Positions 29,157-57,846 of a stretch of 64,000 bases of DNA are shown piece by piece (position 1 is the first letter of the stretch; each line of letters starts with the position of its first letter). The notes under the pieces were generated by a model. The model saw only the letters and a program-made list of their open reading frames with translations, searched no databases and had not been told where the DNA came from. The position numbers and the translations under genes were made by a program. This stretch comes from Styela clava. Taxonomy: Eukaryota > Chordata > Ascidiacea > Stolidobranchia > Styelidae. The stretch is from contig NC_135252.1 in assembly GCF_964204865.1 (NCBI RefSeq), forward strand, positions 14,095,383 through 14,159,382. The letters run 5' to 3'.

Positions 29157-29574
29157 AGGGTTACCATATTTTTGTGACTTCAGAGTGGGAGCTTATAAAT
29201 ACAACGACCCCTTAGCTGTGATTTTGTAACTTTACATTTTCCGATTTTACTACATAGGCCTACATTTAAAGCTATCCCGGCTGTCTTCATTGACCATATT
29301 GTCATCGAGATTTAATGCGCATATTCTCTGTCCAAATATCAGGTTCAGTTCGAAAAATGGCAAGGAATTGTCGTTAACGATACCGGTACAAATAATTCGA
29401 ATTTAGACTAATTAGTATTGGTTTTACATGCGATGCGTTTTCTAACAATGTTAGCGAGAAACAACGAAACAAACGCATTTACCTACCCAAAGCGGGACTT
29501 TTGGCTGACATGGCGGGACAAGACGCTAAAAAGCAGGAATGTCTCGCCTAAATCGGGACGTATGGTAAGCCTAC
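29157..29574. mobile_element. hAT-like non-autonomous element at the left edge of the array
   Basis: The left end is AGGGTTACCATA. The right end, inverted, is GTAGGCTTACCATACGTCC. GTATAAAT occurs directly outside both (29149-29156 and 29575-29582), an apparent 8-bp target duplication. The interior carries GGCGGGACAAGACGC and GTCTCGCC blocks. The tandem array begins inside this element at 29264, so units 2 and 3 keep only its right part (from 38602 and 48182). Confidence 0.7.
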
Positions 29575-31625
29575 GTATAAATATAGTGCAATCAGGCAGC
29601 TAACTATCGCATTAGTAAAGTAGTCTTACTCTTCATTATGAAGCAAATTTTCTGTTTGGGAGGGGCGTGTCCTACGGTAAGTCCATACCAGTATTGCAGC
29701 TCAGCAATTCCATCGGATTCCATAAGTCTTTGTATTCAATGTAGAAAAATTTACATGCAAATGGTTAGAAGCAAAGGTTGCAAGGACAGGATATTGATAG
29801 GCCTATGTGTTCGACTGCAAATCGAAATTAACCGTGTTTCAATGTTTTATAAAAAAAATCATTATTTGTGTGTCATGCTGTAATTGCCTCATCGTTTTTG
29901 ATAAGACCCTGAGTTGGTATAGTTATATTTAAAAGCAGAATATCCAATCAAATGGACGTTTTGGATGCATGAGCATGCCTGATTGGTAGAAATGACGACT
30001 GTTGGATTTTAAAAAAAATCATCGTGTTACGAATATTGGAAAAACAATCGTGCTAATCGTAGGATTACCTAACATAACTTTATTTTGGATAAGCGTTTTA
30101 GTCTTTAGGTAATTTATAAAACAGGTTTCTGTTACAATTATAGCCATTTATTGGAGGAATCTCAAAATCAAACGATAACGAATTGGACAGTAATGTTTCT
30201 ATTTACGCAACTTTGTTTGAAATCTTTCATACATCCGCATATTTCGTATTAATCTGAAACGTACACTGTGATTGATGAGCTTTACTTCGAGGCTTTGGGT
30301 CAGATTGCCTCATTTTTCTATTCTGCAAGGTGTTGTTGTAGAATCTTCTTCCTTCACACTGCATTGTTCAAATACTTAGTATCGTTTTCTAGCCGCCATT
30401 ACATTGCACACGATCCACAGCACAATTAAACAATTTGAAGCAACTGGGTTTCTTCAATGGTACGAGCCACAGCAAATGCAATGTAACAATGTTGAATAAG
30501 AGATGAAAGCTAATATTTTGGCATCATCATGGGAGTTCTCTGAAGACTTGAATGGACTTGTTTAAAACACAGTTAGGCTAATCGACGCGATTTTAACAAT
30601 CGCATTGGATTTGAAATTTTTCCTATTGACACGATTAACGATTAGAAACCATTAATTACAGATATGAAGACTTCGCTGAATGAATGCGGCGCGGAGAAAT
30701 GGGCATTAACAGAGAACCGTTAAAAATAATAAGTATGAAGCAAGTAACGTTTTATACTCCTTTTTTAAAAAAAAATGTTTATTTGATTATGAGCAGATAC
30801 ATGCGACAAAACATAACAGTTCGAGCTCATTATTTATTTTTTACTGAACGCCGGAGTTTCCGATACCATTAAATGTTAATTTGAATTTTGGTATAGCGAA
30901 AGTTTACAATTTATCTATTATATAAACTATTTGGATTTTATGTTTAGCAATTTTGGTCATATGAACATGAGCGTTTCGCAAAACAGAAAGAACAGAAAAA
31001 TTTGAGGTGAAATATCGCGCCAAGTATAAAATTAAAAAATATAATCATGACAATACCCTTCCAGTGACTTCGCCTATCTTGGAGTAATGAATATTTGAAA
31101 TTGATCTCCTCGAATGCCTGTGTTAGCCTACTATTACTATGTACAAAATGCGCTTTTTATTCATCTTGTCATTCAGAAAAGGATGAGACTTTTTTTTATA
31201 TATATTTAAACGGATTTTAATTGTTATTGCAAATGCACATCCAAAAGTTTAATTCCGAGTTAATAATTTTGTTATCGCACTATGATGCTACATCTCTGTG
31301 ACCTTTCTATGATTTTGTTTACGCCCTAGTGATCAGTATTGTACTTGATCAAAGTATAGTATAATATGTATACATTTTAACACATGCCCTCTAAGTCTAA
31401 ACTATACAATAAATCTGATTTAAAGTGTCGAATAGGGGGAATTTTTTTTTATATTTATCAGCCGACTCATTTTTGTCTTTATTTTATAATTTCATATCGT
31501 AATAATCCATACTGACAGTTTGATCACAGCGTAAATAAAATGGTCAGGATCTGTATTTCTGCACTGTATTTCTATAAAAATTTGTACTATTGCCCTTTTT
31601 TAACATTGTTTTATTTAAATAAAAT

Positions 31626-31652
31626 CTCCCTCTCTCTCTCTCTCTCTCTCTA
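31626..31652 (+). repeat. (CT)n microsatellite directly upstream of a TATA promoter
   Basis: An uninterrupted CT run ends about 17 bases before the TATAAATA box at 31668. The equivalent runs at about 41024-41041 and 50604-50621 are shorter, so the repeat length differs between units while the promoter that follows is identical. Confidence 0.85.
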
Positions 31653-31700
31653 GTCCTACGGCGCATTTATAAATAGAGAGATCGGACTTTAGCTTGCGCC
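31653..31700 (+). promoter_or_regulatory. Conserved TATA core promoter, interior type
   Basis: GGCGCATTTATAAATAGA, with TATAAATA at 31668-31675, followed by TTTAGCTTGCGCC. The same core occurs at 41058 and 50638 (interior positions) and at 38302, 47882 and 57458 (unit ends). All six have the identical 18-base core although the flanks differ. In the interior copies the signal exon that should follow lies in inverted orientation, so what this promoter now drives is unclear. Confidence 0.5.
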
Positions 31701-32186
31701 ATAGAAAAAGATCTGGAGCCTCAGATAGATTATACGTTACTAACTGCACCAGTTAAACACAAAACTCAATTCCCTTGTCATGTAAATTGTAAACCATTAA
31801 TGGTTCTAGAATGAAATAAATCCTGTTAATTTTATAGTTCGGCCGTTGGCACAGTTGATCATCATACCGTAAATATATACTACTACGATGATACACGTTT
31901 GGCACGATTCAAATGAATATATTTCTCTGGTAAATTTAACGAAATGATTATATTTAGTCAATATATATATTTTAAACTTCGGCTGATGTCGCTAATTGTT
32001 AGGGGATTTGTTTAAAATTTAGAAAATGGATGAAATCGTGTGCTGTGCATTGAACTAGAACAACGAACATTAAATGAGGTCCGTACTTGGTATGAAAATC
32101 CTCATTTCACGCTATTCCAAAACTTCGTGTGCGTCAAGTTCATATCAAATATTTGAACTAAATTGCCTTCGAGACAAGTCCATGCT

Positions 32187-32372
32187 TAATGGCATCTTAC
32201 TTTGACACGTATAAGTCTTTTTCCAAGATTGTTATATCCTGAAATGTATGAGGTAGCCGACACATAACTTGCAAAAAAATCCGGACGATGTCACCACAAC
32301 TATAAGGAAACATAAAATCAAACCACGAGAAGCTAACAACAAACGTAATAATATGCTGAAATTCAAATACAT
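32187..32372 (-). pseudogene. Frameshifted signal-peptide-like exon (unit 1 copy of candidate D)
   Basis: Same sequence as the open frames at 41533-41718 and 51113-51298, starting ATG TAT TTG AAT and running through a hydrophobic LILC region. One extra base (TCCGGA instead of TCCGA, near 32280) shifts the frame in the middle. It is oriented against the upstream TATA promoter at 31668. Confidence 0.4.
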
Positions 32373-32399
32373 ATCTTACTTTTTAGCACTTTTTAAATA

Positions 32400-33840
32400 A
32401 AAATGTTATTACATTTTATTATTTAAGTTATACATTGACAATTCTCATTCTTCGACGAGAATACTTGAAAAAAAAATATACTTCATGACGACAAATACAA
32501 ATGTGATAAATTTTAGTTTTATGCTTCTCGTTTACGACGAGGCTTTCTACAATGCCAGTTTCTCGCTTTGGAAATTTTTTAAGCTTAGTATCAACTTTCA
32601 GGAATCATGCAATAAATGTTTTAGCTGTTTTAATCTGATAATCAATCTTCAGATGATAGTTGTACGGGCGTGGAAATTTATCAACATAGACAATTGGTTT
32701 TACTAATCGTGCAGTCGTCGCGAATGATTCAGAATTTCTACGATTTGAACAAAGTTTGTTTTATTTCAACTGAAATGTCTTGTTTAAAAAATTTTGCAAT
32801 GGTAGTGTAACATATTCGTAGGAACAATCTATGTTTGAAATTTTGTATCAATATAGATGTCTAATATTTTCTCGTGGGCATGAAAGTAAACATAGGAATA
32901 GGCTTAACACAATAATAAAGAAAGTGATCAAAAAAAGATTTATATTTTAATCGTGTTTTTTTTTCATAATTATATTTTTATCCGTAATTGCTGAATTTAA
33001 GACACCAAAAATAAATCTGCCTAAATTTTTAATTGATCATTTTACGTCAAACCTTGACGTCCTGAACGTCTATTGTTAACATTGCGTCTCATGCAGTAAG
33101 CTTTAGGAACAACAACTTGTTGATATTTCATGGTTTAATCGCGTTTTGTATATTTTGTTTACCACTCGCTTTATATATTGTTTATACGCACTCTGTATTT
33201 TTGTATTTAGATTGTCCGTGAAACGTGACGATTTGGTCACACCTGTCATTCATCTGATAGATTCATCTGTGACATATCAGATAAAGGGTTTATCCTCGCT
33301 GTAACGTTTATAATATACTCTCTTAAGTATCAGAGTTATTAGAGGCTGAGCCGTAGTACGAGAATTTATTACTTCAACCAAATCAGTCCGAAATGTTTTC
33401 ATTAAATAAACAAAGGATTATAGAAACGATTTAATTTTAATTACATTGAAAACGATATGATAATCAAACAGTTGTTTAGACAAAGATTCACAACTTTACT
33501 TCTTTCATTAATACTCTTCGAATATTAAAAATTCAAAACAGGGAGGGTTTTGTATTTTCTTTTTTAGAATGCCTGATTTTTATAAGATCGCTTTTCAGTG
33601 GCGTTATTTTTTTTATTGTATACCCTCTTGTAATTTTGGGAAACTGAAAACCGTCCAGGGCCACGCTCGGGGATTAATGATGGGCTATTACTAATCAACG
33701 AGAGTAGTGGACACTATATGATTGGATGTTGATTTGAATGCAACCATTCACATATATGCTTGAAAACACAGAACGCTAACCGTTTTAATATTTGGACACT
33801 CTATTCGAATGTCCAAAATAAAGACAGAACCTGAAAATTT
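32400..33840. other. Unit 1 interior between candidate D and gene A1
   Basis: No gene is firmly supported. A plus-strand promoter-like region lies at about 33235-33360: GGTCACACCTGTCATTCATC, then GTTTATAATATAC. Downstream is a short frame that in unit 2 (43055-43132) reads MPGFYKIAFQWRY followed by a hydrophobic run and a stop, preceded by the acceptor-like TTTCTTTTTTTAG. A paralogous stretch occurs at 59390-59640 in the right flank. It could be a further small secreted-peptide gene, but I could not build a complete model. Confidence 0.3.
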
Positions 33841-34442
33841 ATATTTGTATAAAAATATATATAGAAAAAATGAATAATATTTTGTCCACTCTAGACTGGT
33901 GGTGCTGTTTGTAACAAATTAAATTCATTACTGTCAGAGAATACTTTTTATATAAGGTCTCGTAACGACTAAACAAGAATAGAATCCGTCGGATTTTAAC
34001 ATGGTTTGCAAAGCATCAACACACATTACCGGCACTGATCCACACATGATGAGAGAACAGCACTGCTATGACCCTTAAATACCACACCATCGAACAAACA
34101 AAATTGTGAATTGAGGCATAGATACAGTTTATAACCATGTTGCAATATAAAATTATTTCACACAAGTATAGAAATATTGCATGGAAACGAAATGACAAAC
34201 GGAAATATTTGTAAATCTTAGATACAGTATACGCAATATATGCTAGCACGTATTAAAAAAATTGTCACAATTGTCAAAAAAGTTCTTGTGGTGTTTTTGG
34301 ATGTTAGAAAAAGTGTAGAATAACAATTTGTTATATATTAGATAAAATAACCGTCGTCATGCAATTAAATAACGTATCGTCCTATTTTCTATGCACCAAG
34401 AACGTTGTATATTTTCCCGAGAGTGAACACCGCTTTCAGTCA

Positions 34443-34858
34443 CTATTCAAAATCAAAGAACGGATCTTCATCTGTTAAATTAAAAATTTGTTTTTGTAAT
34501 TTATATATATTTCCAATGCAATGTAATGATGATTTGATTCAAATGCTTCGCTGATATAAGTTGAATAAATCGGGCAGCAAAGAACTTAATATTGCGGTCT
34601 TACCTAATATAATTGATCCTTTCCTTCGTACGTCCGTGGGCCACCACGATGGAGGCGCTGAGTCTATTCTGAAAGTGAATTATAAAATTGTACATAATAA
34701 TTTAAAATTTTCTTTACATTCCACTATCTTGAACTAACTTTCAATTTTACTAACCTTGAACTCCGGCCTTTTTCAGGCTCTGAGGCTGAGATTAGGACGA
34801 TACTAGATATCAAACAAAACAATAGAAAAATTGCTTTAACTAATCCCGCAATCATCAT
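34443..34858 (-). CDS. Secreted peptide precursor A1 (unit 1), 3 exons, 65 aa
   Basis: Exons 34858-34755, 34668-34604 and 34471-34443, all GT-AG and in phase (198 nt with stop TAG). Two ATGs stand in tandem; the first is used here. Residues 1-25 form a signal peptide (MMIAGLVKAIFLLFCLISS... ending LISA). Then come SEPEKGRSSR, IDSAPPSWWPTDV, the basic site RRKG, and SIILDEDPFFDFE. TATA box at 35039-35046 (minus), about 180 bases before the ATG. Compared with the B genes the basic site ends in Gly rather than Arg, and the residue before it is Val, not Gly. No family recognised; a secreted bioactive or antimicrobial-type precursor is an inference from the layout. Confidence 0.78.
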
Positions 34859-35038
34859 GAAAAAATTAGAATTTTTAAGATTCAAATGATTATTCTAAAT
34901 ACTTCTGTCGTGAGTGTTGGCGCCGAGAATATGATTCAATTTTATGTACGATTTGCTGTTTATAGAAAATCGCATCCCCGTCATATGGTTCGCCACCAGT
35001 CTCCGACGGAAAAAAAATCTAAATTTGCTGATGTTGTA

Positions 35039-35215
35039 TTTTTATAATGAACCGCATTGATAAGTTATATTTATATTGTGTTTGATTCAATGTCATTAAG
35101 CTGGGAGGATTTAAACCACACCTACTGTAGAAAATGCACAAGCTTCACAGAATTTTCAAGGTAACTTCTGATGGCACGAAGCGTCTAATAAGACCATTTG
35201 CATGGTTTAAATATA
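35039..35215 (-). promoter_or_regulatory. Promoter module of peptide gene A1
   Basis: On the minus strand: octamer ATGCAAAT (35196-35203), GACGCTTCGTGCCATCA, T-box-like TAGGTGTG (35117-35124), then TATAAAAATACAACATCAGC (TATA at 35039-35046). Block order and spacing are kept at all six peptide genes and at the orphan copy 61335-61525. Binding factors are inferred from motif resemblance only. Confidence 0.6.
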
Positions 35216-35239
35216 GAAATGTTTCAAACTGAAGAATTA

Positions 35240-35774
35240 AGTCCCATGTCACATTGCCGAATTGAAGTGCAGTAGAAACTGGTTTCATATTAAGAAACTG
35301 TTAACAATTCAGACGTTACTCATAATTCCAAATGTATTACCTAATAACTGTCTTGTTAGGTACACCACCAGAACGTGTACCCTCAAAAACTGGTACCTAA
35401 ACGCCGTTCCCGAATGGCTTTTCCAGTATGACTGTACCCAGCCTGCTGTCACTGTGCCAAGGTGATATTCCCTTTGGTCGTTGCTATGCTGTTTGCTGCC
35501 CATGGTTACCCCTCTCGTACTTGACGGTGCCCAGAGTCTCTTTTCTGTAACAAATTTGGTTTTTGGACTTGATATTTGATATATTAATTTATATATTGTT
35601 CGTCTTATTTCTATTAAACTTGTATCAAAGTTAGACTCCTATCACAGGTATCGCTGATCAATAACCAACTTTGGTTTTTCGCGTCACCTTTCACCATGAA
35701 ATGTCATTTTCAACTTTTTTTATGTTCACTGTGAGTGCATTTTCATTTTGGTGAAAAATAAACTACTGACTGAC
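35240..35774 (+). mobile_element. Retroposon 3' fragment between A1 and B1
   Basis: This block of about 535 bp is present upstream of every A gene (also 44820-45360 and 54403-54941) but absent from the paralogous place upstream of the B genes (around 37380) and of the orphan copy (around 61555). It ends in GAAAAATAAACTACTGACTG, a CTGA-repeat tail typical of LINE or SINE 3' ends. The empty-site comparison shows it entered one half of the A/B duplication before the 9.5-kb unit was amplified. Open frames within it are not supported as genes. Confidence 0.6.
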
Positions 35775-36558
35775 TATTTTCCTTTTTAAACTAAAAATAA
35801 ACATTTAACGTCATCAATTACACGATGATTAAGAGATAAATACGCCAAGGCAAATATTTAAAACAGAAAGATTCTATATTTGAGTACATGAGCATAAAAC
35901 AATCTAAACATAATTTACTTGAACTAAATCTATGTAAAACTAAATTGATGTTCAAATTTCCAGGATAAACACAGACTCAGAAAATTTACATTAGTACAAG
36001 GAAAATGAATAATATTTTGCCCACTCTAGGATGGTGGCGCTGTATGTGACAAATTAATTCATTGTTGTCAGAGTGTATTTATTATATAAAGACTCGCAAC
36101 GGACAAACGATAACAAAATCAGTCAAAATTTAACATGGATTGCAAAGCATCAATACACATTACCGACACTGATCTACGCATCATGCGAGAACAGCACTCT
36201 CATGAGCACAAATATCATACCCACAAAGAAAACAAATTGTGCGTCGAGATATAGGTTTAATTTATAAATGCAAAATTATTTCGCACAAATGTAGAAATAA
36301 TATACAAAAACGAAACGGCAAATATTTGTAGATCTTAAATACACTATATAAGCATTATGAGCTAACATTTTCAGTTCGTCAAAAAAGTTGTCACAACTGT
36401 CAGAAAGTTCTTGTGGGGTTTCTGGATGTTATAAATAGTGTAAATTTGTTTATATCAGATAAAATAATCGTTGTCATAAAATTAAATATCGTATTGTCAT
36501 ATTTTTCATGTAGCAAGAACGTTGTATATTTTCCGGGAGTGAACAGCGATTTCAGTCA

Positions 36559-36978
36559 CTATTCAAAATCGAAGAACGGATCTTCATCTGTAAAATTAAG
36601 GAAAGTTGTTTTTGCAATATATATATATAAATATAAGGCCATATAATGATTATTGGATTCAAATGCTTGACTGATTCAAGTTAAATAAAGCCGGCAGCAA
36701 TAAACCTAATATTACCTAATATAATTGATCTTTTTCTTCGTCCCCACGATGAGTTCGGTGGAGACGTTGAGTCCACTCTAAATGTGAATTATACATATTA
36801 AATACATATACGTTATTTTACATTATAATTTGAAAATTTTCTTTACATTGCGCTATCTTAAACTAAGTTTTAAGTTTACTAACCTTGACTCGCGGGGCCC
36901 ATAGGCTGAGATCAACACGATGGTAGATAGCAAGCAAAATAATAGAAATATTACTTTAACTAATCTCGCAATCATCAT
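36559..36978 (-). CDS. Secreted peptide precursor B1 (unit 1), 3 exons, 61 aa
   Basis: Exons 36978-36884, 36777-36716 and 36587-36559, GT-AG and in phase (186 nt). Signal peptide residues 1-25 (MMIARLVKVIFLLFCLLS... LISA). Then YGPRESR, VDSTSPPNSSW, the processing site GRRKR, and the acidic tail SIILDEDPFFDFE. GRRKR is a furin/PC-type cleavage site. Gly before the basic run is the usual donor for C-terminal amidation, so a peptide ending SSW-amide is predicted. Gene A1 lies about 1.7 kb away on the same strand and has the same intron positions and phases, so A and B are an old duplicate pair. TATA at 37182-37189. Confidence 0.8.
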
Positions 36979-37181
36979 GAAAAAATCAGATTTTTCCGGA
37001 TTCAAATGAATATTCCACTGAAACCTGAAACACTTTTGTCAAATCCTTTTTCCGTGAATGTTGACAACGAGAATATGATTCAATATTACGTACGATTTTT
37101 CGTTTTATAAAAAAATTCTCTCCGTCGGATGGTTCGGTACCAGTCTCCAAAAAAAAAAAAACTAAATTTGCTGATGCTGTA

Positions 37182-37360
37182 TTTATATAATAATCCACAA
37201 TAGATAAGATATATTTCAATTGTGTATTCATTCAATGTCATTAGGCAGGGAGAAATTGTATTCAAACCACACCTACTGTAGAAAATGCACAATTTTCACA
37301 GTCATTTCAAGGTAACGTGTGATGGCACGAAGCGTCCAATAAGAACATTTGCATGGTTTA
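37182..37360 (-). promoter_or_regulatory. Promoter module of peptide gene B1
   Basis: TATATAAATACAGCATCAGC on the minus strand (TATA at 37182-37189). It is preceded by the TAGGTGTG box, GACGCTTCGTGCCATCA and the ATGCAAAT octamer at A-gene spacing. Confidence 0.6.
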
Positions 37361-37399
37361 AATATAAAAATGTTTCAAAACTAAAAATTTATTGTTTTT

Positions 37400-38300
37400 T
37401 AAATTAAACATAAACATTTAACGTCACTAATTACAATATAATTAAGAGATGTAGACGTCAGAACAAATATTGAAAACAGGAAGATTTGAGTGCATGAGCT
37501 AAAACAATCAAAATATAAATGGGAAATTATATCAGGCACTCATTGTCTAACATAAATGTGAAAACAAACAAATCCGTCAACGCAAAACTAATAAAAAATT
37601 AGTCAGTATTTTTGTCACAGACTCTCATTACTTCGTTGTTTACATAACAATGATTTAAAGTAAACAACTTACTTATTATTGGACACGAAATGGACCTATG
37701 GATCGTTTTATTATTAGACTGTTGTTCTTGTTGATATTTTCCTTCTTGTTGTGATCGTATGAAAAAATTCCCGATATCATATAATGCTAATCTAAATTTT
37801 GGTATATATATATATATATAGTACAACCCATCTATTATATAAACTATTCAGGTTTTCTGTTTACCATTTTTGGTCGTACTTTGGACATTAATGTAAATGA
37901 ACATGAGGGTTTCGTAAAACTTATCATCATTCTGATTTAAATTGGCTGTAAACATGGGCACGAAAGTCAAATGACTATGATACAACGCAATGTAAACAAA
38001 TTTCAACTGAATTTTAATTGAATTGTCTCTATTTTCATATGAAGGTATGTCTAAGAATTAAAAAAGGCAAACTTTGGGGTGAAATAACTCACAGGAAATT
38101 GATAAAAAAATCAAGGTATCTGTACTCACTATAACTAATACAACTAATATATGCAAAATCATCTTTTTGTCCATCTTGTCATTTTAAAAAAGATGAGTCT
38201 TGATTCCGAGTTGATAATTTTGCTATCGCACCACAATGCTACATCTCTGTGACCTTTCTATAATGTAGACACATTGTTAAGCCCGAGTCCTACGGCGCAT
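37400..38300. other. Unit 1 stretch between B1 and the unit-end promoter
   Basis: No supported gene. It contains a TA run (GGTATATATATATATATA, about 37800) and sequence paralogous to 35780-35960 at its low end. It is nearly identical to unit 2 (about 46980-47880). Confidence 0.5.
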
Positions 38301-38301
38301 T

Positions 38302-38598
38302 TATAAATAGAAATATATATATAACTTTAGCTTGCGCCCTAGAAATAGATCTGAAGTCACAAATAGATTATAAGTTACTAACTATAGCAGTATAACTACC
38401 AGTTCAAAACACAACTCAATTTCCATGTCATATAAATCATTATGGGGTTTAGAATGAAATGAATCTAAAAATGAAAATGAATGCGATGTACTAACATTTT
38501 CAATTGAAAAGTGCTGGAAAGTATGATATAATTTGAAGTTCAGCATATTCTTACGGTGGTGTTAGCTTTTCGTGGTTTGATTTTATGTTTATTTATTG
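38302..38598 (+). pseudogene. Candidate D promoter with signal exon truncated at the unit 1/2 junction
   Basis: TATAAATA at 38302 is followed about 240 bases later by the hydrophobic coding stretch LAFRGLILCLFIV (from about 38559). It breaks off at ATTTATTG where unit 2 begins. The same truncation recurs at 48178. At the right end of unit 3 the stretch continues unbroken into the flank (57691-57846). Confidence 0.5.
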
Positions 38599-44790: not shown

Positions 44791-44819
44791 ATATAGAAAT
44801 GTTTCAAACTGAAGAATTA

Positions 44820-46144: not shown

Positions 46145-46564
46145 CTATTCAAAATCGAAGAACGGATCTTCATCTGTAAAATTAAAGAAAGTTGTTTTTG
46201 CAATATATATATATAAATATAAGGCCACATAATGATTATTGGATTCAAATGCTTGACTGATTCAAGTTAAATAAAGCCGGCAGCAATAAACCTAATATTA
46301 CCTAATATAATTGATCTTTTTCTTCGTCCCCACGATGAGTTCGGTGGAGACGTTGAGTCCACTCTGAATGTGAATTATACATATTAAATACATATACGTT
46401 ATTTTACATGATAATTTGAAAATTTTCTTTACATTCCGCTATCTTAAACTAAGTTTTAAGTTTACTAACCTTGACTCGCGGGGCCCATAGGCTGAGATCA
46501 ATACGATGGTAGATAGCAAACAAAATAATAGAAATATTACTTTAACTAATCTCGCAATCATCAT
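46145..46564 (-). CDS. Secreted peptide precursor B2 (unit 2), 3 exons, 61 aa
   Basis: Exons 46564-46470, 46363-46302 and 46173-46145, GT-AG and in phase. The protein reads as B1 throughout: YGPRESR, VDSTSPPNSSW, GRRKR, SIILDEDPFFDFE. Near identity with B1, in introns as well, fits a recent shared origin through unequal exchange. TATA at 46762-46769. Confidence 0.8.
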
Positions 46565-46761
46565 GAAAAAATCAGATTTTTCCGGATTCAAATGAATATT
46601 CCACTGAAACACTTTTGTCAAATCCTTTTTCCGTGAATGTTGACAACGAGAATATGATTCAATATTACGTACGATTTTTCGTTTTATAAAAAAATTCTCT
46701 CCGTCGGATGGTTCGGTACCAGTCTCCAAAAAAAAAAAAAACTAAATTTGCTGATGCTGTA

Positions 46762-46940
46762 TTTATATAATAATCCACAATAGATAAGATATATTTCAAT
46801 TGTGTATTCATTCAATGTCATTAGGCAGGGAGAAATTGTATTCAAACCACACCTACTGTAGAAAATGCACAATTTTCACAGTCATTTCAAGGTAACGTGT
46901 GATGGCACGAAGCGTCCAATAAGAACATTTGCATGGTTTA
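46762..46940 (-). promoter_or_regulatory. Promoter module of peptide gene B2
   Basis: TATATAAATACAGCATCAGC plus the conserved upstream block, virtually identical to B1. Confidence 0.6.
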
Positions 46941-49900
46941 AATATAAAAATGTTTCAAAACTAAAAATTTATTGTTTTTTAAATTAAACATAAACATTTA
47001 ACGTCACTAATTACAATATAATTAAGAGATGTAGACGTCAGAACAAATATTGAAAACAGGAAGATTTGAGTGCATGAGCTAAAACAATCAAAATATAAAT
47101 GGGAAATTATATCAGGCACTCATTGTCTAACATAAATGTGAAAACAAACAAATCCGTCAACGCAAAACTAATAAAAAATTAGTCAGTATTTTTGTTACAG
47201 ACTCTCATTACTTCGTTGTTTACATAACAATGATTTAAAGTAAACAACTTACTTATTATTGGACACGAAATGGACCTATGAATCGTTTTATTATTAGACT
47301 GTTGTTCTTGTTGATATTTTCCTTCTTGTTGTGATCGTATGAAAAAATTCCCGATATCATATAATGCTAATCTAAATTTTGGTATATATATATATATATA
47401 GTACAACCCATCTATTATATAAACTATTCAGGTTTTCTGTTTACCATTTTTGGTCGTACTTTGGACATTAATGTAAATGAACATGAGGGTTTCGTAAAAC
47501 TTATCATCATTCTGATTTAAATTGGCTGTAAACATGGGCACGAAAGTCAAATGACTATGATACAACGCAATGTAAACAAATTTCAGCTGAATTTTAATTG
47601 AATTGTCTCTATTTTCATATGAAGGTATGTCTAAGAATTAAAAAAGGCAAACTTTGGGGTGAAATAACTCACAGGAAATTGATAAAAAAATCAAGGTATC
47701 TGTACTCACTATAACTAATACAACTAATATATGCAAAATCATCTTTTTGTCCATCTTGTCATTTTAAAAAAGATGAGTCTTGATTCCGAGTTGATAATTT
47801 TGCTATCGCACCACAATGCTACATCTCTGTGACCTTTCTATAATGTAGACACATTGTTAAGCCCGAGTCCTACGGCGCATTTATAAATAGAAATATATAT
47901 ATAACTTTAGCTTGCGCCCTAGAAATAGATCTGAAGTCACAAATAGATTATAAGTTACTAACTATAGCAGTATAACTACCAGTTCAAAACACAACTCAAT
48001 TTCCTTGTCATATAAATCATTAGGGGGTTTAGAATGAAATGAATCTAAAAATGAAAATGAATGCGATGTACTGACATTTTCAATTGAAAAGTGCTGGAAA
48101 GTATGATATAATTTGAAGTTCAGCATATTCTTACGGTGGTGTTAGCTTTTCGTGGTTTGATTTTATGTTTATTTATTGTTTATTTAAAGCTATCCCGGCT
48201 GTCTTCATTGACCATATTGTCATCGACATTTAATGCGCATATTCTCTTTCCAAATATCGGGTTCAGTTCGAAAAATGGAAAGGAATTGACGTTAACGATA
48301 CCGGTACAAATAATTCGAATTTAGACTAAATAGTATTGGTTTTACATGCGATACGTTTTCTAACAATGTTAGCAAGAAACAACGAAACAAACGCATTTAC
48401 CTACCCAAAGCGAGACTTTTGGCTGACATGTCGGGACGGCGGGACAAGACGCTAAAAAGCAGGACTGTCTCGCCTAAAGCGGGACGTATGGTAAGCCTAC
48501 GTATAAATACAGTGCAATCAGGCAGCTAACTATCGCATTAGTAAAGTAGTCTTACTCTTCATTATGAAGCAAATTTTCTGTTGGGAAGGGGCGTGTCCCA
48601 CGGTAAGTCTATACCAGTATTGCAGCTCAGCAGTTCTATCGGATTCCATAAGTGTTTGTATTCAATGTAGAAAAATTTACATGCAAATGGTAAGAAGCAA
48701 AGGTTGCAAAAACAGGATATTGATAGGCATATATGTTCGACTGCAAATCGAAATTAACCGTGTTTCAATGTTTTATAAAGAAATTATTAGTTGTGTGTCA
48801 TGCTGTAATTGCCTCATCGTTTTTGATAAGACCCTGAGTTGGTATAGTTATATTTAAAAGCAGAATATCCAATCAAATGGACGTTTTGGATGCATGAGCA
48901 TGCCTGATTGGTAGAAATGGCGACTGTTAGATTTTAAAATATTCATCGTGTTACGAATATTGGAAAAAACAATCGTGCTAATCGTAGGGTTAACTAACAT
49001 AACTTTATTTTGGATAAAAGCGTTTTAGTCTTTAGGTAATTTATAAAACAGGTTTCTGTTACAATTATGGCCATTTATTGGAGGAATCTCAAAATCAAAC
49101 AATAAAGAATTGGACAGTAATGTTTCTATTTACGCAACTTTGTTTGAAATCTTTCATACATCCGCATATTTCGTATTAATTTGAAACGTACACTGTGATT
49201 GATGAGCTTTACTTCGAGGCTTTGGGCCAGATTGCCTCATTTTTCTATTCTGCAAGGTGCTGTTGTAGAATCTTCTTCCTTCACACTGCATTGTTCAAAT
49301 ACTCAGTATCGTTTTCTAGCCGCCATTACATTGCACACGATCCACAGCACAATTAAACAATTTGAAGCAACTGGGTTTCTTCAATGGTACGAGCCACAGC
49401 AAATGCAATGTAACAATGTTGAATAAGAGATGAAAGCTATTATTTTGGCATCATCATGGGAGTTCTCTGAAGACTTGAATGGACTTGTTTAAAACACAGT
49501 TAGGCTAATCGACACGATTTTAACAATCGCATCGGATTTGAAATTTTTCCTATTGACACGATTAACGATTAGAAACCATTAATTACAGATATGAAGACTT
49601 CGCTGAATGAATGGGGCGCGGAGAAATGGGCATTAACAGAGAACCGTTAAAAATAAGTATGAAGCAAGTAACGTTTATACTCATTTTTCTCAAAAAAATG
49701 AATTTGATTATGAGCAGATACATGCGACAAAACATAACAGTCGAGCTCATTATTTATTTTTTACTGAACGCCGGAGTTTCCGATACCATTAAATGTTAAT
49801 TTGCATTTTGGTATAGTGAAAGTTTACAATTTATCTATTATATAAACTATTTAGATTTTATGTTTAGCAATTTTGGTCATATGAACATGAGCGTTTCGCA

Positions 49901-51112
49901 AAACAGAAAGAACAGAAAAATTCGAGGTGAAATATCGCGCCAAGTATAAAATTAAAAAATATAATCATGACAATACCCTTCCAGTGACTTCGCCTATCTT
50001 AGAGTAATGAAAATTTGAAAATTGATCTCCTCGAATGCCTAGCAAGATAACTGTGTTGGCCTACTATTATTATGTACAAAATGGGCTTTTTATTCATCTT
50101 GTCATTCAGAAAAGGATGAGACTTTTTTATATATTTCTAAACGGATTTTAATTGTTATTGCAAATGCACATCCAAAAGTTTAATTCCGAGTTAATAATTT
50201 TGTTATCGCACTATGATGCTACATCTCTGTGACCTTTCTATGATTTTGTTTACGCCCTAGTGATCAGTATTGTACTTGATCAAAGTATGGTATAATATGT
50301 ATACATTTTAACACATGCCCTCTGAACTATACAATAAATCTGATTTAAAGTGTCGAATAGGGGAAAATTTCTCTTTATATTTATCAGCCGACTCATTTTT
50401 GTCTTTATTTTATAATTTCATATTGAAATAATCCATACTGACAGTTTGATCACAGAGTAAATAAAATGGTCAGGAGCCTCGGTGACCTGTAAAGGTCTTG
50501 CATACTGACCAACACGATTCAATGTTTAATTATTAACTGCACTGTATTTCTATAAAAATTGGTACTATTGCCCTTTTTTAACATTGTTTTATGTAAATAA
50601 AATCTCTCTCTCTCTCTCTCTAGTCCTACGGCGCATTTATAAATAGAGAGATGGGACTTTAGCTCGCGCCACAGAAAAAGATCTGGAGCCACAGATATAC
50701 GTTACTAACTATACAACCAGTTAAAAACAAAACTCAATTCCCTTGTGATGTAAGCCATTAATGTTCTAGAATGAAACAAATCCTGTTAATTTTGTAGTTC
50801 GGCCGTTAGCACAGTTGATCATCATACACGTTTGGCACGATGCAAATAAATAAATTTCTCTGATAAATTTAATGAAATGATTATATTTAGTCAACAAATA
50901 TATTTTAAAATTCGTCTGATGTCGCTAATTTCTTTAAAATTTCGAAAATGGATGAAATCGTGTGTTGTTCATTGAACTGGAACAACGAACGAACATTCAA
51001 TGAGGTCCGTACTTGGTATTAAAATCCTCATTTCACGCTATTCCAAAACTTCGTGTGCGTCAAGTTCATATCAAATATTATGAACTAAATTACCTTCGAG
51101 ACGAGTTCATGG

Positions 51113-51298
51113 TTATTTGCATTTTACTTTGACTCGTATAAGTCTTTTTCCCAGATTATTATATCCTAAAATGTATGCGGTAGCCGACACATAACTTGCA
51201 AAAAAATCGGACGATGTCACCAAAACTATAAGGAAACATAAAATCAAACCACGAGAAGCTAACAACAAACGTAATAATATGCTGAAATTCAAATACAT
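51113..51298 (-). CDS. Candidate D signal-peptide-like open frame (unit 3)
   Basis: Same 61-codon frame as 41533-41718 with one residue changed (VLVTSS for VVVTSS). The same caveats apply: orientation opposes the nearby TATA promoter at 50638 and no second exon is confirmed. Confidence 0.3.
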   Translation of the reverse strand: MYLNFSILLRLLLASRGLILCFLIVLVTSSDFFASYVSATAYILGYNNLGKRLIRVKVKCK

Positions 51299-53607
51299 AA
51301 CTTACTTTTTAGCACTTTTCAAATAAAAATGTTAGTACATCGCATTCACTTTCATTTTAGGAGATTAACATGGTGATAAGATAATTGTGGAAGCCGTTCG
51401 GATAAATGTCGCGATATAAATTTTATAAACAGGTCATATCTTTTTTACGTTGTCCAAAACACAACACCAGCTCTTCTCATATTTAAGTTATACATTGACA
51501 ATTCTCATTCTTCGACAAGAATACTTGAAAAAATATACCTCATGACAACGAATAAAAATGTAATAACTTTTAGTTTTATGTTTCTCGTTTACGAAGAGGC
51601 TTTCTACAATGCCAGTTTTTCGCTTTGTAAATTTTTTAAGGTTAGTATCAACTTTCAGAAGTCATGCGATAAATGTTTCAGCTGTTTTAATCTGATAATC
51701 AATCTTCAGATGATAGTTGTACGGGCGTGAAATAAAACAACACAGACAATTGGTTTTACTAATCGTGCAGTCGTCGCGAATGATTCAGAATTTCTACGAT
51801 TTGAACAAAGTTTGTTTTATTTCAACTGAAATGTCTTGTTTAAACACTTTTGCAATGGTAGTGTAACATATTCGTAGGAACAATCTATTTTGACACCATG
51901 TTTGAAATTTTGTATTAATATAGATGTCTAATATTTTCTCGTGGGCATGAAAGTAAACATAGGAATAGGCTTAACACAATAATAAAGAAAGTGATCGAAA
52001 AAAGATTCATATTTTTATCGTGTTTTTTTTTCATAATTATATTTTTATCAGTAATTGCTGAATTTAAGACACCAAAAATAAATCTGCCTAAATTTTTAAT
52101 TGATCATTTTACGTCAAACCTTGACGTCCTGAACGTCTATTGTTAACATTGCGTCTCATGCAGTAAGCTTTAGGAACAACAACTTGTTGATATTTCATGG
52201 TTTAATCGCGTTTTGTATAGTTTGTTTACCACTCGCTTTATATGTTGTTTATACGCACTCTGTATTTTTGTATTTAGATTGTCCGTGAAACGTGACGATT
52301 TGGTCACACCTGCCATTCATCTGATAGATTCATCTGTGACATATCAGATAAAGGGTTGATCCTCGCTGTCACGTTTATAATATACTCTCTTGAGGTATCA
52401 GAGTTATTAGAAGCTGAGCCGTAGTACGAGAATTTATTACTTCAACCAAATCAGTCCGAAATGTTTTCATTAAACAAAAAAAGGATTGTAGAAACGAGTT
52501 AATTTTAATTACATCGAAAACGATATGATAATCAAACAGTTGTTTAGACAAAGATTCACAACTTTACTTCTTTCATTAATACTCTTCGAATATTAAAAAT
52601 TCAAAACAGGGAAGGTTTTTTATTTTCTTTTTTAGAATGCCTGATTTATATAAGAAAGCTTTTCAGTGGCGTTATTTTTTTATTGCAATCTCTCTTGTAA
52701 TTTTGGGAAACTGAAAACCGTCCAGGCCCACGCTCGGGGATTAATGATGGACTAATAATAATTACTAATCAGCGAGAGTAGTGGACACTATATGATTGGA
52801 TGTTGATTTGAATGCAACCATTCACATATATGATTGAAAACACAGAACACTAACCGTTTTAATATTTAGACACTCTGTTGACTTTATTTTTACTATGAAA
52901 ACAGCGCAATATTATACGAATTTTTAAGAATTTTGGTTGTTCACCGCTTCAAACGGAAATAAATTGATATTCGAATGTCTAAAATAAAGACAGAACCTGA
53001 AAATTTATATTTGTATATAAATATATATAGAAAAAATGAATGATATTTTGTCCACTCTAGACTGGTGGTGCTGTTTGTAACAAATTAAATTCATTACTGT
53101 CAAAGAATACTTTTTATATAAGGTCTCGTAACGACTAAACAATAATAGAATCCGTCGGATTTTAACATGGTTTGCAAAGCATTAACACACATTACCGACA
53201 CTGATCCACACATGACGAGAGAACAGCACTGCTATGATCCTTAAATGCCACACCCTCGAACAAACAAAATTGTGAATTGAAGCATAGATACAGTTTATAA
53301 ACATGTCCAATATAACATTATTAAACACATGTATAAAAATATTGCATGGAAACGAAATGACAAACGGAAATATTTGTACATCTTAAATACAGTATACGCA
53401 ATATATGCTAGCACGTATCAAAAAAATTGTCACAATTGTCAAAAAAGTTCTTGTGGTGTTTTTGGATGTTAGAAAAAGTGTAGAATAACAATTTGTTATA
53501 TATTAGATAAAATAACCGTCGTCATGCAATTAAATAACGTATCGTCCTATTTTCTATGCACCAAGAACGTTGTATATTTTCCCGGGAGTGAACACCGCTT
53601 TCAGTCA

Positions 53608-54022
53608 CTATTCAAAATCAAAGAACGGATCTTCATCTGTTAAATTAAAATTTTTTTTTGTAATCTTTCTATATTTCCAATGCAATGTAATGATGATTTG
53701 ATTCAAATGCTTCGCTGATATAAGTTGAATAAAGCGGGCAGCAAATAACTTAAGATCGCGGTCTTACCTATTATAATTGATCCTTTCCTTCGTCCGTCCG
53801 TGGGCCACCACGATGGAGGCGTTGAGTCTATTCTGAAAGTGAATTATAAAATTGTACATAAAAATTTAAAATTTTCTTTACATTCCACTATCTTGAACTA
53901 ACTTTTAATTTTACTAACCTTGAACTCCGGCCTATTTCAGGCTCTGAGGCTGAGATTAAGACGATACTAGATATCAAACAAAACAATAGAAAAATTGCTT
54001 TAACTAATCCCGCAATCATCAT
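53608..54022 (-). CDS. Secreted peptide precursor A3 (unit 3), 3 exons, 65 aa
   Basis: Exons 54022-53919, 53832-53768 and 53636-53608, GT-AG and in phase. Both tandem ATGs are present. After the signal peptide: SEPEIGRSSR, IDSTPPSWWPTDG, RRKG, SIIIDEDPFFDFE, the same processed region as A2. TATA at 54203-54210. Confidence 0.78.
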
Positions 54023-54202
54023 GAAAAAATTAGACTTTTTAAGATTCAAATGATTATTCTAAATACTTCTGTCGTGAGTGTTGGCGCCGAGAATATGATT
54101 CAATTTTATGTACGATTTGCTGTTTATAGAAAACCGCATCCCCGTCATATGGTTCGCCACCAGTCTCCGACGGAAAAAAAATCTAAATTTGCTGATGTTG
54201 TA

Positions 54203-54372
54203 TTTTTATAATGCACTGCATTGATAAGTTATAATTAAATTGTGTTTGATTCAATGTCATTAAGCTGGGAGGATTTAAACCACACCTACTGTAGAAAATG
54301 CACAAGCTTCACAGAAATTTCAAGGTAACTTCTGATGGCACGAAGCGCCTAATAAGAACATTTGCATGGTTT
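54203..54372 (-). promoter_or_regulatory. Promoter module of peptide gene A3
   Basis: TATAAAAATACAACATCAGC and the conserved upstream block. The octamer ATGCAAAT is intact. Confidence 0.6.
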
Positions 54373-54402
54373 AAATATAGACATGTTTCAAACTGAAGAA
54401 TT

Positions 54403-54941
54403 GGGTCCCATGTCACAGTGCCGAATTGAAGTGCAGTAGAAACTGGTTTCATATTAAGAAACTGTTAACAATTCAGACGTTACTCACAATTCCAAATGTT
54501 CTACCTAATACCTGTCTTGTTAAGTACACCACCAGAACGTGCACCCTCAAAAACTGGTACCTAAACGCCGTTCCCGAATGGCTTTTTCAGTATGACTGTA
54601 CCCAGCCTGCTGTCACTGTGCCAAGGTGATATTCACTTTGGTCGTTGCTATGCTGTTTGCTGCCCATGGTTACCCCTCTCGTACTTGACGGTGCCCAGAG
54701 TTTCTTTTCTGTAACAAATGTGTTTTTTGGACTTGATATTTGATATATTAATTTATTTGTTCGTCTTATTTCTATTAAACTTGTATCAAAGTTAAACTCT
54801 TATCACAGGTGTCGCTGATCAATAACCAACTTTGGTTTTTTGCGTCACCTTTCACCATGAAATGTCATTTTCAACTTTTTTTAAGTTTATGTTCACTGTG
54901 AATGCATTTTCATTTTGGTAAAAAATAAGCTACTGACTGAC
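54403..54941 (+). mobile_element. Retroposon 3' fragment between A3 and B3
   Basis: Unit 3 copy of the insertion seen at 35240-35774, with the same CTGACTGAC end. Confidence 0.6.
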
Positions 54942-55725
54942 TATTTTCCTTTTTGAACTAAAAATAAACATTTGACGTCATCAATTACACGATAATTAAG
55001 AGATAAATACGCCAATGCAAATATTTAAAACAGAAAGATTCTATATTTGAGTACATGAGCATAAAACAATCTAAACATAATTTACTTGAACTAAATCTAT
55101 GTAAAACTAAATTGATGTTCAAATGTCCAGAATAAACACAGACTCAGAAAATTTACATTAGTACAAGGAAAATGAATAATATTTTGCCCACTCTAGGATG
55201 GTGGCGCTGTATGTGACAAATTAATTCATTGTTGTCAGAGTGTATTTATTATTGAAAGACTGGCAACGGACAAACGATATTAAAATCAGTCAAAATTTAA
55301 CATGGATTGCAAAGCATCAATACACATTACCGACACTGATCTACGCATCATGCGAGAACAGCACTCTCATGAGCACAAATATCATACCCACAAAGAAAAC
55401 AAATTGTGCGTCGAGATATAGGTTTAATTTATAAATGCAAAATTATTTCGCACAAATGTAGAAATAATATACAAAAACGAAACGGCAAATATTTGTAGAT
55501 CTTAAATACACTATATAAGCATTATGAGCTAACATTTTCAGTTCGTCAAAAAAGTTGTCACAACTGTCAAAAAGTTCTTGTGGGGTTTCTGGATGTTATA
55601 AATAGTGTAAATTTGTTTATATCAGATAAAATAATCGTTGTCATAAAATTAAATAACGTATCGTCATATTTTTCATGTAGCAAGAACGTTGTATATTTTC
55701 CGGGAGTGAACAGCGATTTCAGTCA

Positions 55726-56142
55726 CTATTCAAAATCAAAGAACGGATCTTCATCTGTAAAATTGAGGAAAGTTGTTTTTGCAATAAATATATATATATA
55801 AGGCCATATAATGATGACTGGATTCAAATGCTTGACTGATTCAAGTTAAATAAAGCCGGCAGCAATAAACCTAATATTACCTAATATAATTGATCTTTTT
55901 CTTCGTCCCCACGATGAGTTCGGTGGAGACGTTGAGTCCACTCTGAATGTGAATTATACATATTACATACATATACGGTATTTTACATGATAATTAGTAA
56001 ATTTTTTTACATTCCACTATCTTAAACTTAGTTTTAAGTTTACTAACCTTGAATCGTATGGTATTTGGGCTGAGATTAACACGATGGTAGATAGCAAACA
56101 AAATAATAGAAATATTGCTTTAATTAATCTCGCAATCATCAT
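55726..56142 (-). CDS. Secreted peptide precursor B3 (unit 3), 3 exons, 61 aa
   Basis: Exons 56142-56048, 55942-55881 and 55754-55726, GT-AG and in phase. Signal peptide MMIARLIKAIFLLFCLLS... LISA, then QIPYDSR where B1 and B2 have YGPRESR. From there VDSTSPPNSSW, GRRKR and SIILDEDPFFDFE are unchanged. The segment just after the signal peptide is therefore the variable part, while the GRRKR region and acidic tail are fixed. TATA at 56341-56348. Confidence 0.8.
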
Positions 56143-56340
56143 GAAAAAATCAGATTTTTCCGGATTCAAATCAATATTCCACTGAAACACTTTTGTCAAA
56201 TACTTTCTCCGTGAATGTGGACAACGAGAATATGATTCAATATTACGTACGATTTTTCGTTTTATAAAAAAATTCTTTCCGTCGGATGGTTCGGTACCAG
56301 TCTCCAACGAAAAAAAAAAACTAAATTTGCTGATGCTGTA

Positions 56341-56520
56341 TTTATATAATAATCCACAATAGATAAGATATATTTCAATTGTGTATTCATTCAATGTCAT
56401 TAGGCTGGGAGAAACTGTATTCAAACCACACCTGCTGTAGAAAATGCACAATTTTCACAGTCACTTCAAGGTAACTTGTGATGGCACGAAGCGTCCAATA
56501 AGAACATTTGTATGGTTTAA
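56341..56520 (-). promoter_or_regulatory. Promoter module of peptide gene B3
   Basis: TATATAAATACAGCATCAGC is kept. The octamer is changed by one base (ATACAAAT) and the T-box-like block reads CAGGTGTG. Confidence 0.55.
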
Positions 56521-57439
56521 ATACAGAAATGTTTCAAAGCTAAAAAATTATTGTTTTTTAAATTAAACATAAACACTTAACGTCAATATTTACAAAATAA
56601 TTAAGAGATGTAGACGTCAGAACAAATATTGAAAACAGGAAGATTTGAGTGCATGAGCTAAAACAATCAAAATATAAATGGGAAATTATATCAGGCACTC
56701 ATTGTCTAACATAGATGTGAAAACAAACAAATCCGTCAACGCAAAACTAATAAAAAACTAGTCAGTATTTTTGATACAGACTCTCATTACTTCGTTGTTT
56801 ACATAACAATGATTTAAAGTAAACAACTTACTTATTATTGGACACGAAATGGACCTATGGATCGTTTTATTATTAGACTGTTGTTTTTGTTGATATTTTC
56901 CTTCTTGTTGTCATCGTATGAAAAAATTCCCGATAGCATAATATGTCAATCTGAATTTTGGTATATATATATAGTACAACCCATCTAATATATAAACTAT
57001 TCAGGTTTTCTGTTTACCAATTTTGCTCATACTTTGGACATTAATGTAAATGAACATGAGGGTTTCGTAAAACCTAACATCATTCTGAATTAAATTGGCT
57101 GTAAACATGGGCACGAAAGTCAAATGACTATGATTACAACGCAATGTAAACAAATTTCAGCTGAATGTTAATTGAATTGTATCGATTTCCATATGAAGGT
57201 ATGTATAAGAATTAAAAAAGGCAAACTTTGGGGTGAAATTACTCACAGGAAATTGATAAAAAATCAAGGTATCTGTACTCACTATAACGAATACAACTAA
57301 TATATGCAAAATCATCTTTTTGTCCATCTTGTCATTTTAAAAAAGATGAGTCTTCATTCCGAGTTGATAATTTTGCTATCGCACCACAATGCTACATCTT
57401 TGTGACCTTTCTATAATGTAGACACATTGTGTTTACGCC

Positions 57440-57490
57440 CGAGTCCTACGGCGCATTTATAAATAGAAATATATATATAACTTTAGTTTG
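57440..57490 (+). promoter_or_regulatory. TATA core promoter of candidate D at the right edge of the array
   Basis: GGCGCATTTATAAATAGA with TATAAATA at 57458-57465. It is about 225 bases upstream of the candidate D exon, in the same orientation. This is the only one of the six copies still joined to a complete signal exon. Confidence 0.5.
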
Positions 57491-57690
57491 CGCCCTAGAA
57501 ATAGATCTGAAGTCACAAATAGATTATAGGTTACTTACTATAGCACCATTTTGAAACACAACTCAATTCCCTTGTCATATAAATCATGAGGGATTTTAGA
57601 ATGAAATGAATCTAAAAATGAAAATGAATGCGATGTACTAACATTTTCAATGGAAAAGTGCTGGAAAGTATGATATAATTTGAATTTCAG

Positions 57691-57846
57691 CATATTCTTA
57701 CGGTTGTGTTAGCTTTTCGTGATTTGATTTTATGTTTATTTATTGTAGTATCGGTGACATCGTCCGACCTTTTTGCAAGTTCTGTATCGGATACCTCATC
57801 TATTTCAGGATATAATAATCTGGGAAAAATGCTTATACGTGTCAAA
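57691..57846 (+). CDS. Candidate D exon, right-flank paralog (52 codons, unproven)
   Basis: Bounded by an acceptor-like TTGAATTTCAG and a donor GTAAGA. It is open for exactly 52 codons, with a hydrophobic run LILCLFIVVSVTSSD followed by SGYNNLGKMLIRVK. No in-frame ATG lies inside, so an upstream exon would be needed; none is confirmed. Compared with the unit copies, GKR has become GKM, which would remove the dibasic site. A secreted precursor is suggested by the hydrophobic segment only. Confidence 0.25.

What the first reader, a model, noticed from the sequence alone, without database searches (positions are those of the whole stretch)
29264..57745. Undescribed cluster of six small secreted-peptide genes on a threefold 9.5-kb tandem repeat
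Seen: six minus-strand three-exon genes (A1, B1, A2, B2, A3, B3) with identical intron positions and phases (2 then 1), intact GT-AG sites, no stops, a TATA box each, and products of 61-65 residues. All have a signal peptide, a Pro/Trp-containing middle, a basic site and the tail DEDPFFDFE. The longest piece fits in one 104-bp exon, so ordinary gene callers would miss them. Known: signal peptide plus basic cleavage site is the plan of secreted peptide precursors (neuropeptides, antimicrobial peptides, pheromones). Inference: a recently amplified, possibly novel peptide system. I do not recognise the family.
Basis: partly seen in the sequence, partly recalled or inferred. Interest (0 to 1): 0.88.

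Follow-up and report, generated by a model that had tools for sequence, protein, structure and literature searches.

The report
Tandem secreted-peptide genes in an ascidian
Seven tiny three-exon genes in a sea squirt, repeated side by side, look like real precursors of a secreted peptide that varies in the middle but keeps the same start and end; the design is familiar, but the family has no significant match in the databases searched and its function is untested.

Summary
Six minus-strand genes (A1, B1, A2, B2, A3, B3) lie on three 9.3-9.6 kb tandem units with the intron phases, splice sites and TATA boxes reported. A seventh, more diverged gene (C) lies 0.6 kb beyond the window. Comparing types A, B and C shows coding genes: synonymous changes exceed nonsynonymous ones (B1 v C 22/41.5 v 18/138.5 sites, Fisher p 5e-7), and all 8 aligned coding indels are multiples of three. 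Two whole-genome searches find only this cluster. The host is a tunicate, Styela clava or very close. No significant relative turned up in about 5.8 billion proteins, a set that holds at least one S. clava protein. Signal and tail are conserved; the middle changes much faster. Best reading: a lineage-restricted secreted-peptide family whose variable, usually amidated middle is released from an acidic tail. Expression, processing and function are untested. Interesting, but a new family of a known kind.

The parts
29264..38601 (.). tandem unit 1 (9338 bp)
38602..48181 (.). tandem unit 2 (9580 bp); left part matches unit 3, right part matches unit 1 (hybrid, as unequal crossing over would leave)
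48182..57746 (.). tandem unit 3 (9565 bp)
34755..34858 (-). gene A1 exon 1 (signal peptide)
34604..34668 (-). gene A1 exon 2 (middle peptide, VRRKG)
34443..34471 (-). gene A1 exon 3 (tail DEDPFFDFE, stop)
34959..34964 (-). A1 TATA box
36884..36978 (-). gene B1 exon 1
36716..36777 (-). gene B1 exon 2 (GRRKR)
36559..36587 (-). gene B1 exon 3
37104..37109 (-). B1 TATA box
44335..44435 (-). gene A2 exon 1 (first ATG of the others is ATA here; starts at second Met)
44184..44248 (-). gene A2 exon 2 (GRRKG)
44023..44051 (-). gene A2 exon 3
44539..44544 (-). A2 TATA box
46470..46564 (-). gene B2 exon 1
46302..46363 (-). gene B2 exon 2 (GRRKR)
46145..46173 (-). gene B2 exon 3
46683..46688 (-). B2 TATA box
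53919..54022 (-). gene A3 exon 1
53768..53832 (-). gene A3 exon 2 (GRRKG)
53608..53636 (-). gene A3 exon 3
54123..54128 (-). A3 TATA box
56048..56142 (-). gene B3 exon 1
55881..55942 (-). gene B3 exon 2 (GRRKR)
55726..55754 (-). gene B3 exon 3
56261..56266 (-). B3 TATA box
61214..61552 (-). orphan A-type promoter region (84% to the upstream region of A1) whose gene body is missing: relic of a further copy
63708..64000 (-). 3' flank of gene C; its exons lie beyond the window (L001: exon 1 1125-1019, exon 2 937-864, exon 3 727-699, minus strand)

Best explanation
A lineage-restricted family of secreted-peptide precursors in an ascidian (Styela clava or very close). SHOWN from sequence: seven spliced coding genes with a conserved hydrophobic leader, a fast-changing 18-27 residue Pro/Trp-containing middle, a basic site (GRRKR in 4, GRRKG in 2, VRRKG in 1) and an almost invariant acidic tail SII[L/I]DEDPFFDFE. 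INFERRED: the leader directs the product into the secretory pathway, and furin or a prohormone convertase cuts at RRKR (or after RR in the A type). Carboxypeptidase then trims the basic residues and the exposed Gly is amidated (general knowledge of such precursors). This would free a variable peptide (B: ...PPNSSW-amide; C: ...FWWPTN-amide; A2/A3: ...WWPTD-amide), the effector, from the acidic tail, which acts as a pro-piece. The conserved-ends, variable-middle pattern and the recent tandem amplification fit a peptide facing a changing target (host defence, surface or reproductive signalling) better than a conserved neuropeptide. Unequal crossing over most likely enlarged the array (inferred from the hybrid unit 2).
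For: Coding: B1 v C dS 0.92, dN 0.14, introns 0.43; Fisher p 5e-7, 1e-4 (B3 v C), 0.002 (A1 v B1), 0.009 (A2 v C), tests not independent; CDS indels 9,3 / 6,9,3 / 15,12,3 (8 of 8 multiples of three) against 1 of 11 intron indels. Pattern by part, five between-type pairs: nonsynonymous fraction pN 0.07-0.16 (signal; pS 0.23-0.58), 0.25-0.38 (middle; pS 0.24-0.67), 0.00-0.06 (tail with basic site; pS 0.09-0.28). Leader: hydropathy maximum 2.6-3.0, basic residues before it and Ala at the likely cut (read from the sequence). Amidation Gly 6 of 7, basic site 7 of 7. Amplification: unit 2 matches unit 3 over its left 4 kb and unit 1 over its right 2.5 kb. Most Ciona antimicrobial precursor candidates share the order signal, mature region, anionic end (PMC7387483, passages), and furin is reported in ascidian morula-cell granules (PMC9966394, passages).
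Against: No transcript or peptide evidence. No SignalP-type predictor could be run. The middle is not cationic (net charge 0 to -2), unlike known ascidian antimicrobial peptides. In the three pairs with gene C the middle still changes 1.5 to 2.2 times less at nonsynonymous than at synonymous sites (A2-C, B1-C, B3-C), so it is fast but not shown to be under positive selection. Two lesions sit inside the family: A1 lost the amidation Gly and A2 lost the first ATG. Within types changes are few and often nonsynonymous (A1 v A2: 5 v 1), so some copies may be drifting. The most conserved part is the tail, which could itself be the active peptide.
Confidence: 0.5

Rival explanations
1. The tail is the hormone: cleavage at RRKR frees a 13-residue peptide SIILDEDPFFDFE, conserved because a receptor reads it, and the variable middle is a spacer.
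For: The tail is the most conserved part, pN 0.00-0.06 between types; DEDPFFDFE is identical in 7 of 7.
Against: The Gly before RR in 6 of 7 suggests that the part before it is used (amidated). The A type lost the full RRKR site. An acidic end is the pro-piece in 17 of 22 Ciona antimicrobial candidates (PMC7387483, passages).
Confidence: 0.2
2. Host-defence (antimicrobial) peptide family, alike in design to styelins, clavanins and Ci-MAM/Ci-PAP.
For: Same order signal - mature - anionic end as most Ciona candidates (PMC7387483); styelins and clavanins come from Styela clava haemocytes (PMC2866484, passages); conserved signal and tail with a fast middle; tandem copies.
Against: Middle not cationic and Pro-containing, so no cationic amphipathic helix is expected; the Ciona candidates lack a basic processing motif and styelins and clavanins are said to be cut before D or DD, while this family has a basic site.
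Confidence: 0.2
3. Uncleaved small membrane protein with the acidic tail outside the cell or in the lumen.
For: The leader is long (24-25) and very hydrophobic.
Against: Ala at the likely cut (LISA), basic residues on the N side, GRRKR in 4 of 7.
Confidence: 0.07
4. Non-coding repeats or dead gene copies.
For: A1 and A2 lesions; no database protein; no expression evidence held.
Against: Synonymous excess, in-frame indels, intact frames in all seven, splice sites and TATA boxes present.
Confidence: 0.03

Closest known systems
Ascidian linear antimicrobial precursors (Ci-MAM, Ci-PAP, styelins, clavanins)
   Same: Short precursor; conserved signal; acidic C-terminal part after the mature region (Ciona candidates, PMC7387483 passages); same animal group, and styelins and clavanins come from Styela clava (PMC2866484 passages)
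   Different: Here the middle is neutral to acidic and Pro/Trp-containing, and a classical basic site is present; sequence similarity to their precursors was not tested directly
Amidated neuropeptide precursors in general (single-copy peptide, Gly-basic site)
   Same: Signal, one peptide, Gly donor, basic site
   Different: The would-be peptide changes quickly between paralogues; no known C-terminal family signature recognised
Pyrokinin/neuromedin U (PRX-amide) type; P0001, a database protein with WFGPRL-GRRKRSIILDED
   Same: Ungapped GRRKRSIILDED and a Pro three residues before the amide Gly shared with gene C (by eye)
   Different: E = 6.1, not significant; PRX-amide absent in 7 of 7; probably convergence
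CiEMa, a Ciona haemocyte peptide (PMC10888236)
   Same: Ascidian, reported as Ciona-specific, amidated, Pro-containing secreted peptide
   Different: Sequence NERKGAEPQFPPEM-amide is unrelated by eye, and it is cleaved at non-basic sites (passages)

Membership tests
secreted peptide precursor | N-terminal signal peptide | tested here: inconclusive
   hydropathy in all seven and Ala at the likely cut by eye; no trained predictor available
secreted peptide precursor | basic cleavage site after the peptide | tested here: met
   RRKR in 4 of 7, RRKG in 3 of 7
amidated neuropeptide/hormone | Gly directly before the basic site | tested here: met
   6 of 7; Val in A1
amidated neuropeptide/hormone | conserved bioactive C-terminus of the peptide | tested here: not met
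   NSSW, WPTD, WPTN between types; middle pN 0.25-0.38
pyrokinin/neuromedin U (PRX-amide) | PRX-amide C-terminus (recalled) | tested here: not met
   0 of 7 products
Wamide superfamily (GLWamide/MIP) | repetitive precursor with several Wamide peptides | tested here: not met
   one site per precursor; Trp before the Gly only in the B type; [quoted passage not shown]
ascidian cationic antimicrobial peptides | cationic mature region | tested here: not met
   net charge 0 to -2 (its slice dropped the first Asp of gene C, which makes C -1)
ascidian cationic antimicrobial peptides | anionic C-terminal part | tested here: met
   tail net -5 in 7 of 7
ascidian cationic antimicrobial peptides | antimicrobial activity, haemocyte expression | not testable with these tools
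   needs bench work or RNA-seq
any Pfam / NCBIfam / PDB family | profile or sequence match | tested here: not met
   Pfam, 3 products, no match over cut-off; NCBIfam, 0 of 5 members; PDB none with C alone, profile best E 0.64, to a glycophorin leader

The most novel reading that the evidence does not exclude
An undescribed peptide-signalling or recognition family in the sister group of vertebrates: a constant acidic tail plus a type-specific amidated Trp/Pro peptide, in an array whose copy number is probably still changing between individuals through unequal crossing over, so that animals of one species differ in their peptide set.
Probability: 0.15. Interest if true: 0.65.

Novelty: new member of a known kind. 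Interest (0 to 1): 0.42.

Why it matters
Tiny multi-exon peptide genes easily escape annotation. Here one such family shows selection for coding in a chordate, while a protein collection that holds at least one annotated protein of the same or nearest species has no significant match. If expressed, it gives a ready set of peptides to synthesise and test in an animal long used for immune-peptide work, and a clear case of conserved-ends, variable-middle evolution caught during tandem growth.

Tried and rejected
Homology: B1 product, then a five-sequence profile, against about 5.8 billion proteins. The one hit has E = 6.1 (P0001, read), and I reject it as convergence. Viral contigs: 42 pattern stretches, none confirmed. 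Pfam, NCBIfam and PDB gave nothing over cut-off; the weak Pfam hits (MPS2, YDR124W-like) are below their cut-offs. Rfam and tRNA scans of the window: none.

A first genome-wide pattern gave 0 matches. It was a bad guess (it runs over the exon 2/3 junction with the wrong codons), so it says nothing. The better tail pattern did not complete, so only the DNA search and the protein search speak to copies elsewhere.

A possible signal-like exon (MDKKMILHILVVLVI followed by GTGAGT) about 1.2 kb upstream of each B gene (38174, 47754, 57327) was looked at. A related stretch at 31129-31191 carries a stop soon after its ATG (31164); two more (40482-40544, 50062-50124) were not read. I did not find, and did not systematically search for, a partner exon, so I claim no gene.

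Mitochondrial code test of the host (family PF00115): none of its requests was answered. The host was placed by the cellulose synthase - GH6 gene and by P0002 instead.

Literature: searches showed no paper on this family in their listings. Text search cannot look up a sequence, so this is weak evidence of novelty.
Full report
Setting. The window is G000:C3:14095383-14159382 of a 376.6 Mb genome in 379 contigs. The host is a tunicate. A cellulose-synthase exon, recognised by eye from its TED and QRSRW motifs, starts 2.7 kb before a GH6 exon (PF01341, 35.4 bits, cut-off 27) on a 23.8 Mb contig; that combination is known in animals only from tunicates (recalled). TTAGGG telomere arrays stand at 6 of the 9 chromosome-sized contig starts that could be read (a tenth reads N), and at 0 of 10 pieces from smaller contigs; this alone does not separate phyla. 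A methyltransferase-like gene 49 kb beyond the window is 98.2% identical over 284 residues to Styela clava LOC120342810 (taxonomy). So the species is Styela clava or a very near relative. Left of the array lie an STT3 exon on the + strand and ZNF598-type exons on the - strand (STT3 core and ZNF598 RING over their cut-offs, the two zinc-finger exons below).

The genes. A type: 104/65/29 bp exons; B type: 95/62/29; phases 2 and 1; introns 86-132 bp. Products: A1 MMIAGLVKAIFLLFCLISSIVLISASEPEKGRSSRIDSAPPSWWPTDVRRKGSIILDEDPFFDFE; A3 (and A2 from its second Met) ...SEPEIGRSSRIDSTPPSWWPTDGRRKGSIIIDEDPFFDFE; B1 and B2 MMIARLVKVIFLLFCLLSTIVLISAYGPRESRVDSTSPPNSSWGRRKRSIILDEDPFFDFE; B3 ...QIPYDSRVDSTSPPNSSWGRRKRSIILDEDPFFDFE. 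Fetching the flank showed a seventh gene, C: MMNARLTKAIVLFYLLSTIVLISADDSPSSFARNSRVDLTPPPPLFWWPTNGRRKRSIILDEDPFFDFE, with the same phases and GT-AG introns of 81 and 136 bp. TATA boxes lie 106-132 bp before the ATG in the six (TATATA at 124 in C), and each gene has an AATAAA 475-825 bp after the stop. A genome-wide DNA search with gene C found seven places, the seven genes. A protein search at E up to 10 found five exon matches, all in these genes. That search is loose at its first step and did not recover every known exon, so distant relatives could be missed.

Are they coding? Between types, synonymous sites change more than nonsynonymous ones, and nonsynonymous divergence is below intron divergence. 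B1 v C: dS 0.92, dN 0.14, introns 0.43. A1 v B1: 0.41, 0.12, 0.23. A2 v C: 0.49, 0.20, 0.25. The contrast is weakest for A2 v B3 (0.22, 0.15). Fisher tests give 5e-7 (B1-C), 1e-4 (B3-C), 0.002 (A1-B1) and 0.009 (A2-C), the four pairs tested, and they are not independent. The coding indels in three pairwise alignments (8 in all, about four events) are all multiples of three; of 11 intron indels one is. Under neutral substitutions alone, all three lineages kept start, frame and stop in 0.18% of 20,000 simulations (branch lengths set by me from the intron distances). Results against: within the A type 5 nonsynonymous v 1 synonymous change (A1-A2), B1-B3 9.3 v 4.7 (B1-B2 0 v 2), a lost first ATG in A2 and a lost amidation Gly in A1.

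Anatomy of change. One search split the product. In five between-type pairs the nonsynonymous fraction is 0.07-0.16 in the signal, 0.25-0.38 in the middle and 0.00-0.06 in the tail with its basic site; the synonymous fractions are 0.23-0.58, 0.24-0.67 and 0.09-0.28. So the middle is fast, near the synonymous rate in the A-B pairs and about half to two thirds of it in the pairs with C; positive selection is not shown. Exon 2 is less alike between A and B (0.74) than the introns (0.81-0.88 in a multiple alignment; 0.79-0.82 pairwise for A1-B1). The middle is neutral to acidic; the tail after the basic site has net charge -5. This is the usual donor for C-terminal amidation (general knowledge).

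How the array grew. Units 1, 2 and 3 are 96.2-97.6% alike. Diagnostic sites show that unit 2 matches unit 3 on its left about 4 kb (38.6-42.6 kb) and unit 1 on its right about 2.5 kb (from 45.6 kb), with a mixed stretch between. That is what unequal crossing over between two older units would leave, with a third haplotype or conversion in the mixed stretch. Between unit 3 and gene C lies a decayed stretch with an A-type promoter and no gene body (61214-61552). An assembly error cannot be excluded from sequence alone.

What it is and how it works. I commit to a secreted precursor cut at the basic site, freeing a variable, usually amidated peptide from an acidic tail. The anatomy and the selection pattern are shown; secretion, cutting, amidation and target are inferred. 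The order of parts equals that of most Ciona antimicrobial precursor candidates, which have a signal, a cationic region and, in 17 of 22, an anionic end, but no basic processing motif (PMC7387483, passages). The middle here fails the cationic test. A conserved neuropeptide would be expected to keep the C-terminus of its peptide; this family does not. The active-tail reading remains the main rival.

Comparison with the known. No significant database relative: about 5.8 billion proteins, B1 alone and a five-sequence profile. The same database returned the S. clava methyltransferase-like protein at E 2.9e-176, so the species is represented at least in part, and an annotated protein of this family of about 34-121 residues, if held, should have been found (inference). 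The only profile hit, P0001 (E = 6.1), carries WFGPRL-GRRKRSIILDED, a pyrokinin-like end (recalled); I treat it as convergence because the PRX-amide is missing in all seven products. CiEMa (PMC10888236, passages), the Ciona peptide review (PMC8936170, part 1 of 4 of the text) and the Wamide review (PMC7270403, passages) offer no match in what I saw of them. Paper searches list nothing on this family.

Verdict. A real gene family of a familiar kind, apparently not annotated, well supported as coding, with function open. Interest 0.42.

Noticed in passing
window 38174, 47754, 57327 (minus strand): Short signal-like reading MDKKMILHILVVLVI (VF in place of VL in the third copy) followed by GTGAGT about 1.2 kb upstream of each B gene; a related stretch at 31129-31191 is broken by a stop. 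No partner exon found (not searched systematically).
   Followed up: partly
L002-L009, e.g. extended window coordinates 77699-78427, 89775-90656, 128646-129287: Repeated family of large exons (YEEWEYENISKHVCSTKVPLWNGIFCAVDPKY...), looks like an acetyltransferase-type enzyme expansion right of the array (by eye).
   Followed up: no
extended window coordinates 108820-111753 and 116469-119804 (minus): Long reverse-transcriptase ORFs of LINE type (by eye).
   Followed up: no
window 62745-63014: 16-bp tandem repeat array, about 17 copies.
   Followed up: no
window 19444-19824 and 15694-16023 (minus): Two exons sharing an [F/Y]F[D/N][L/I]EA-like stretch (EENVFFDLEACGL, TENVYFNIEAYQI); possibly paralogous gene pieces left of the array; no Pfam family over cut-off.
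   Followed up: partly
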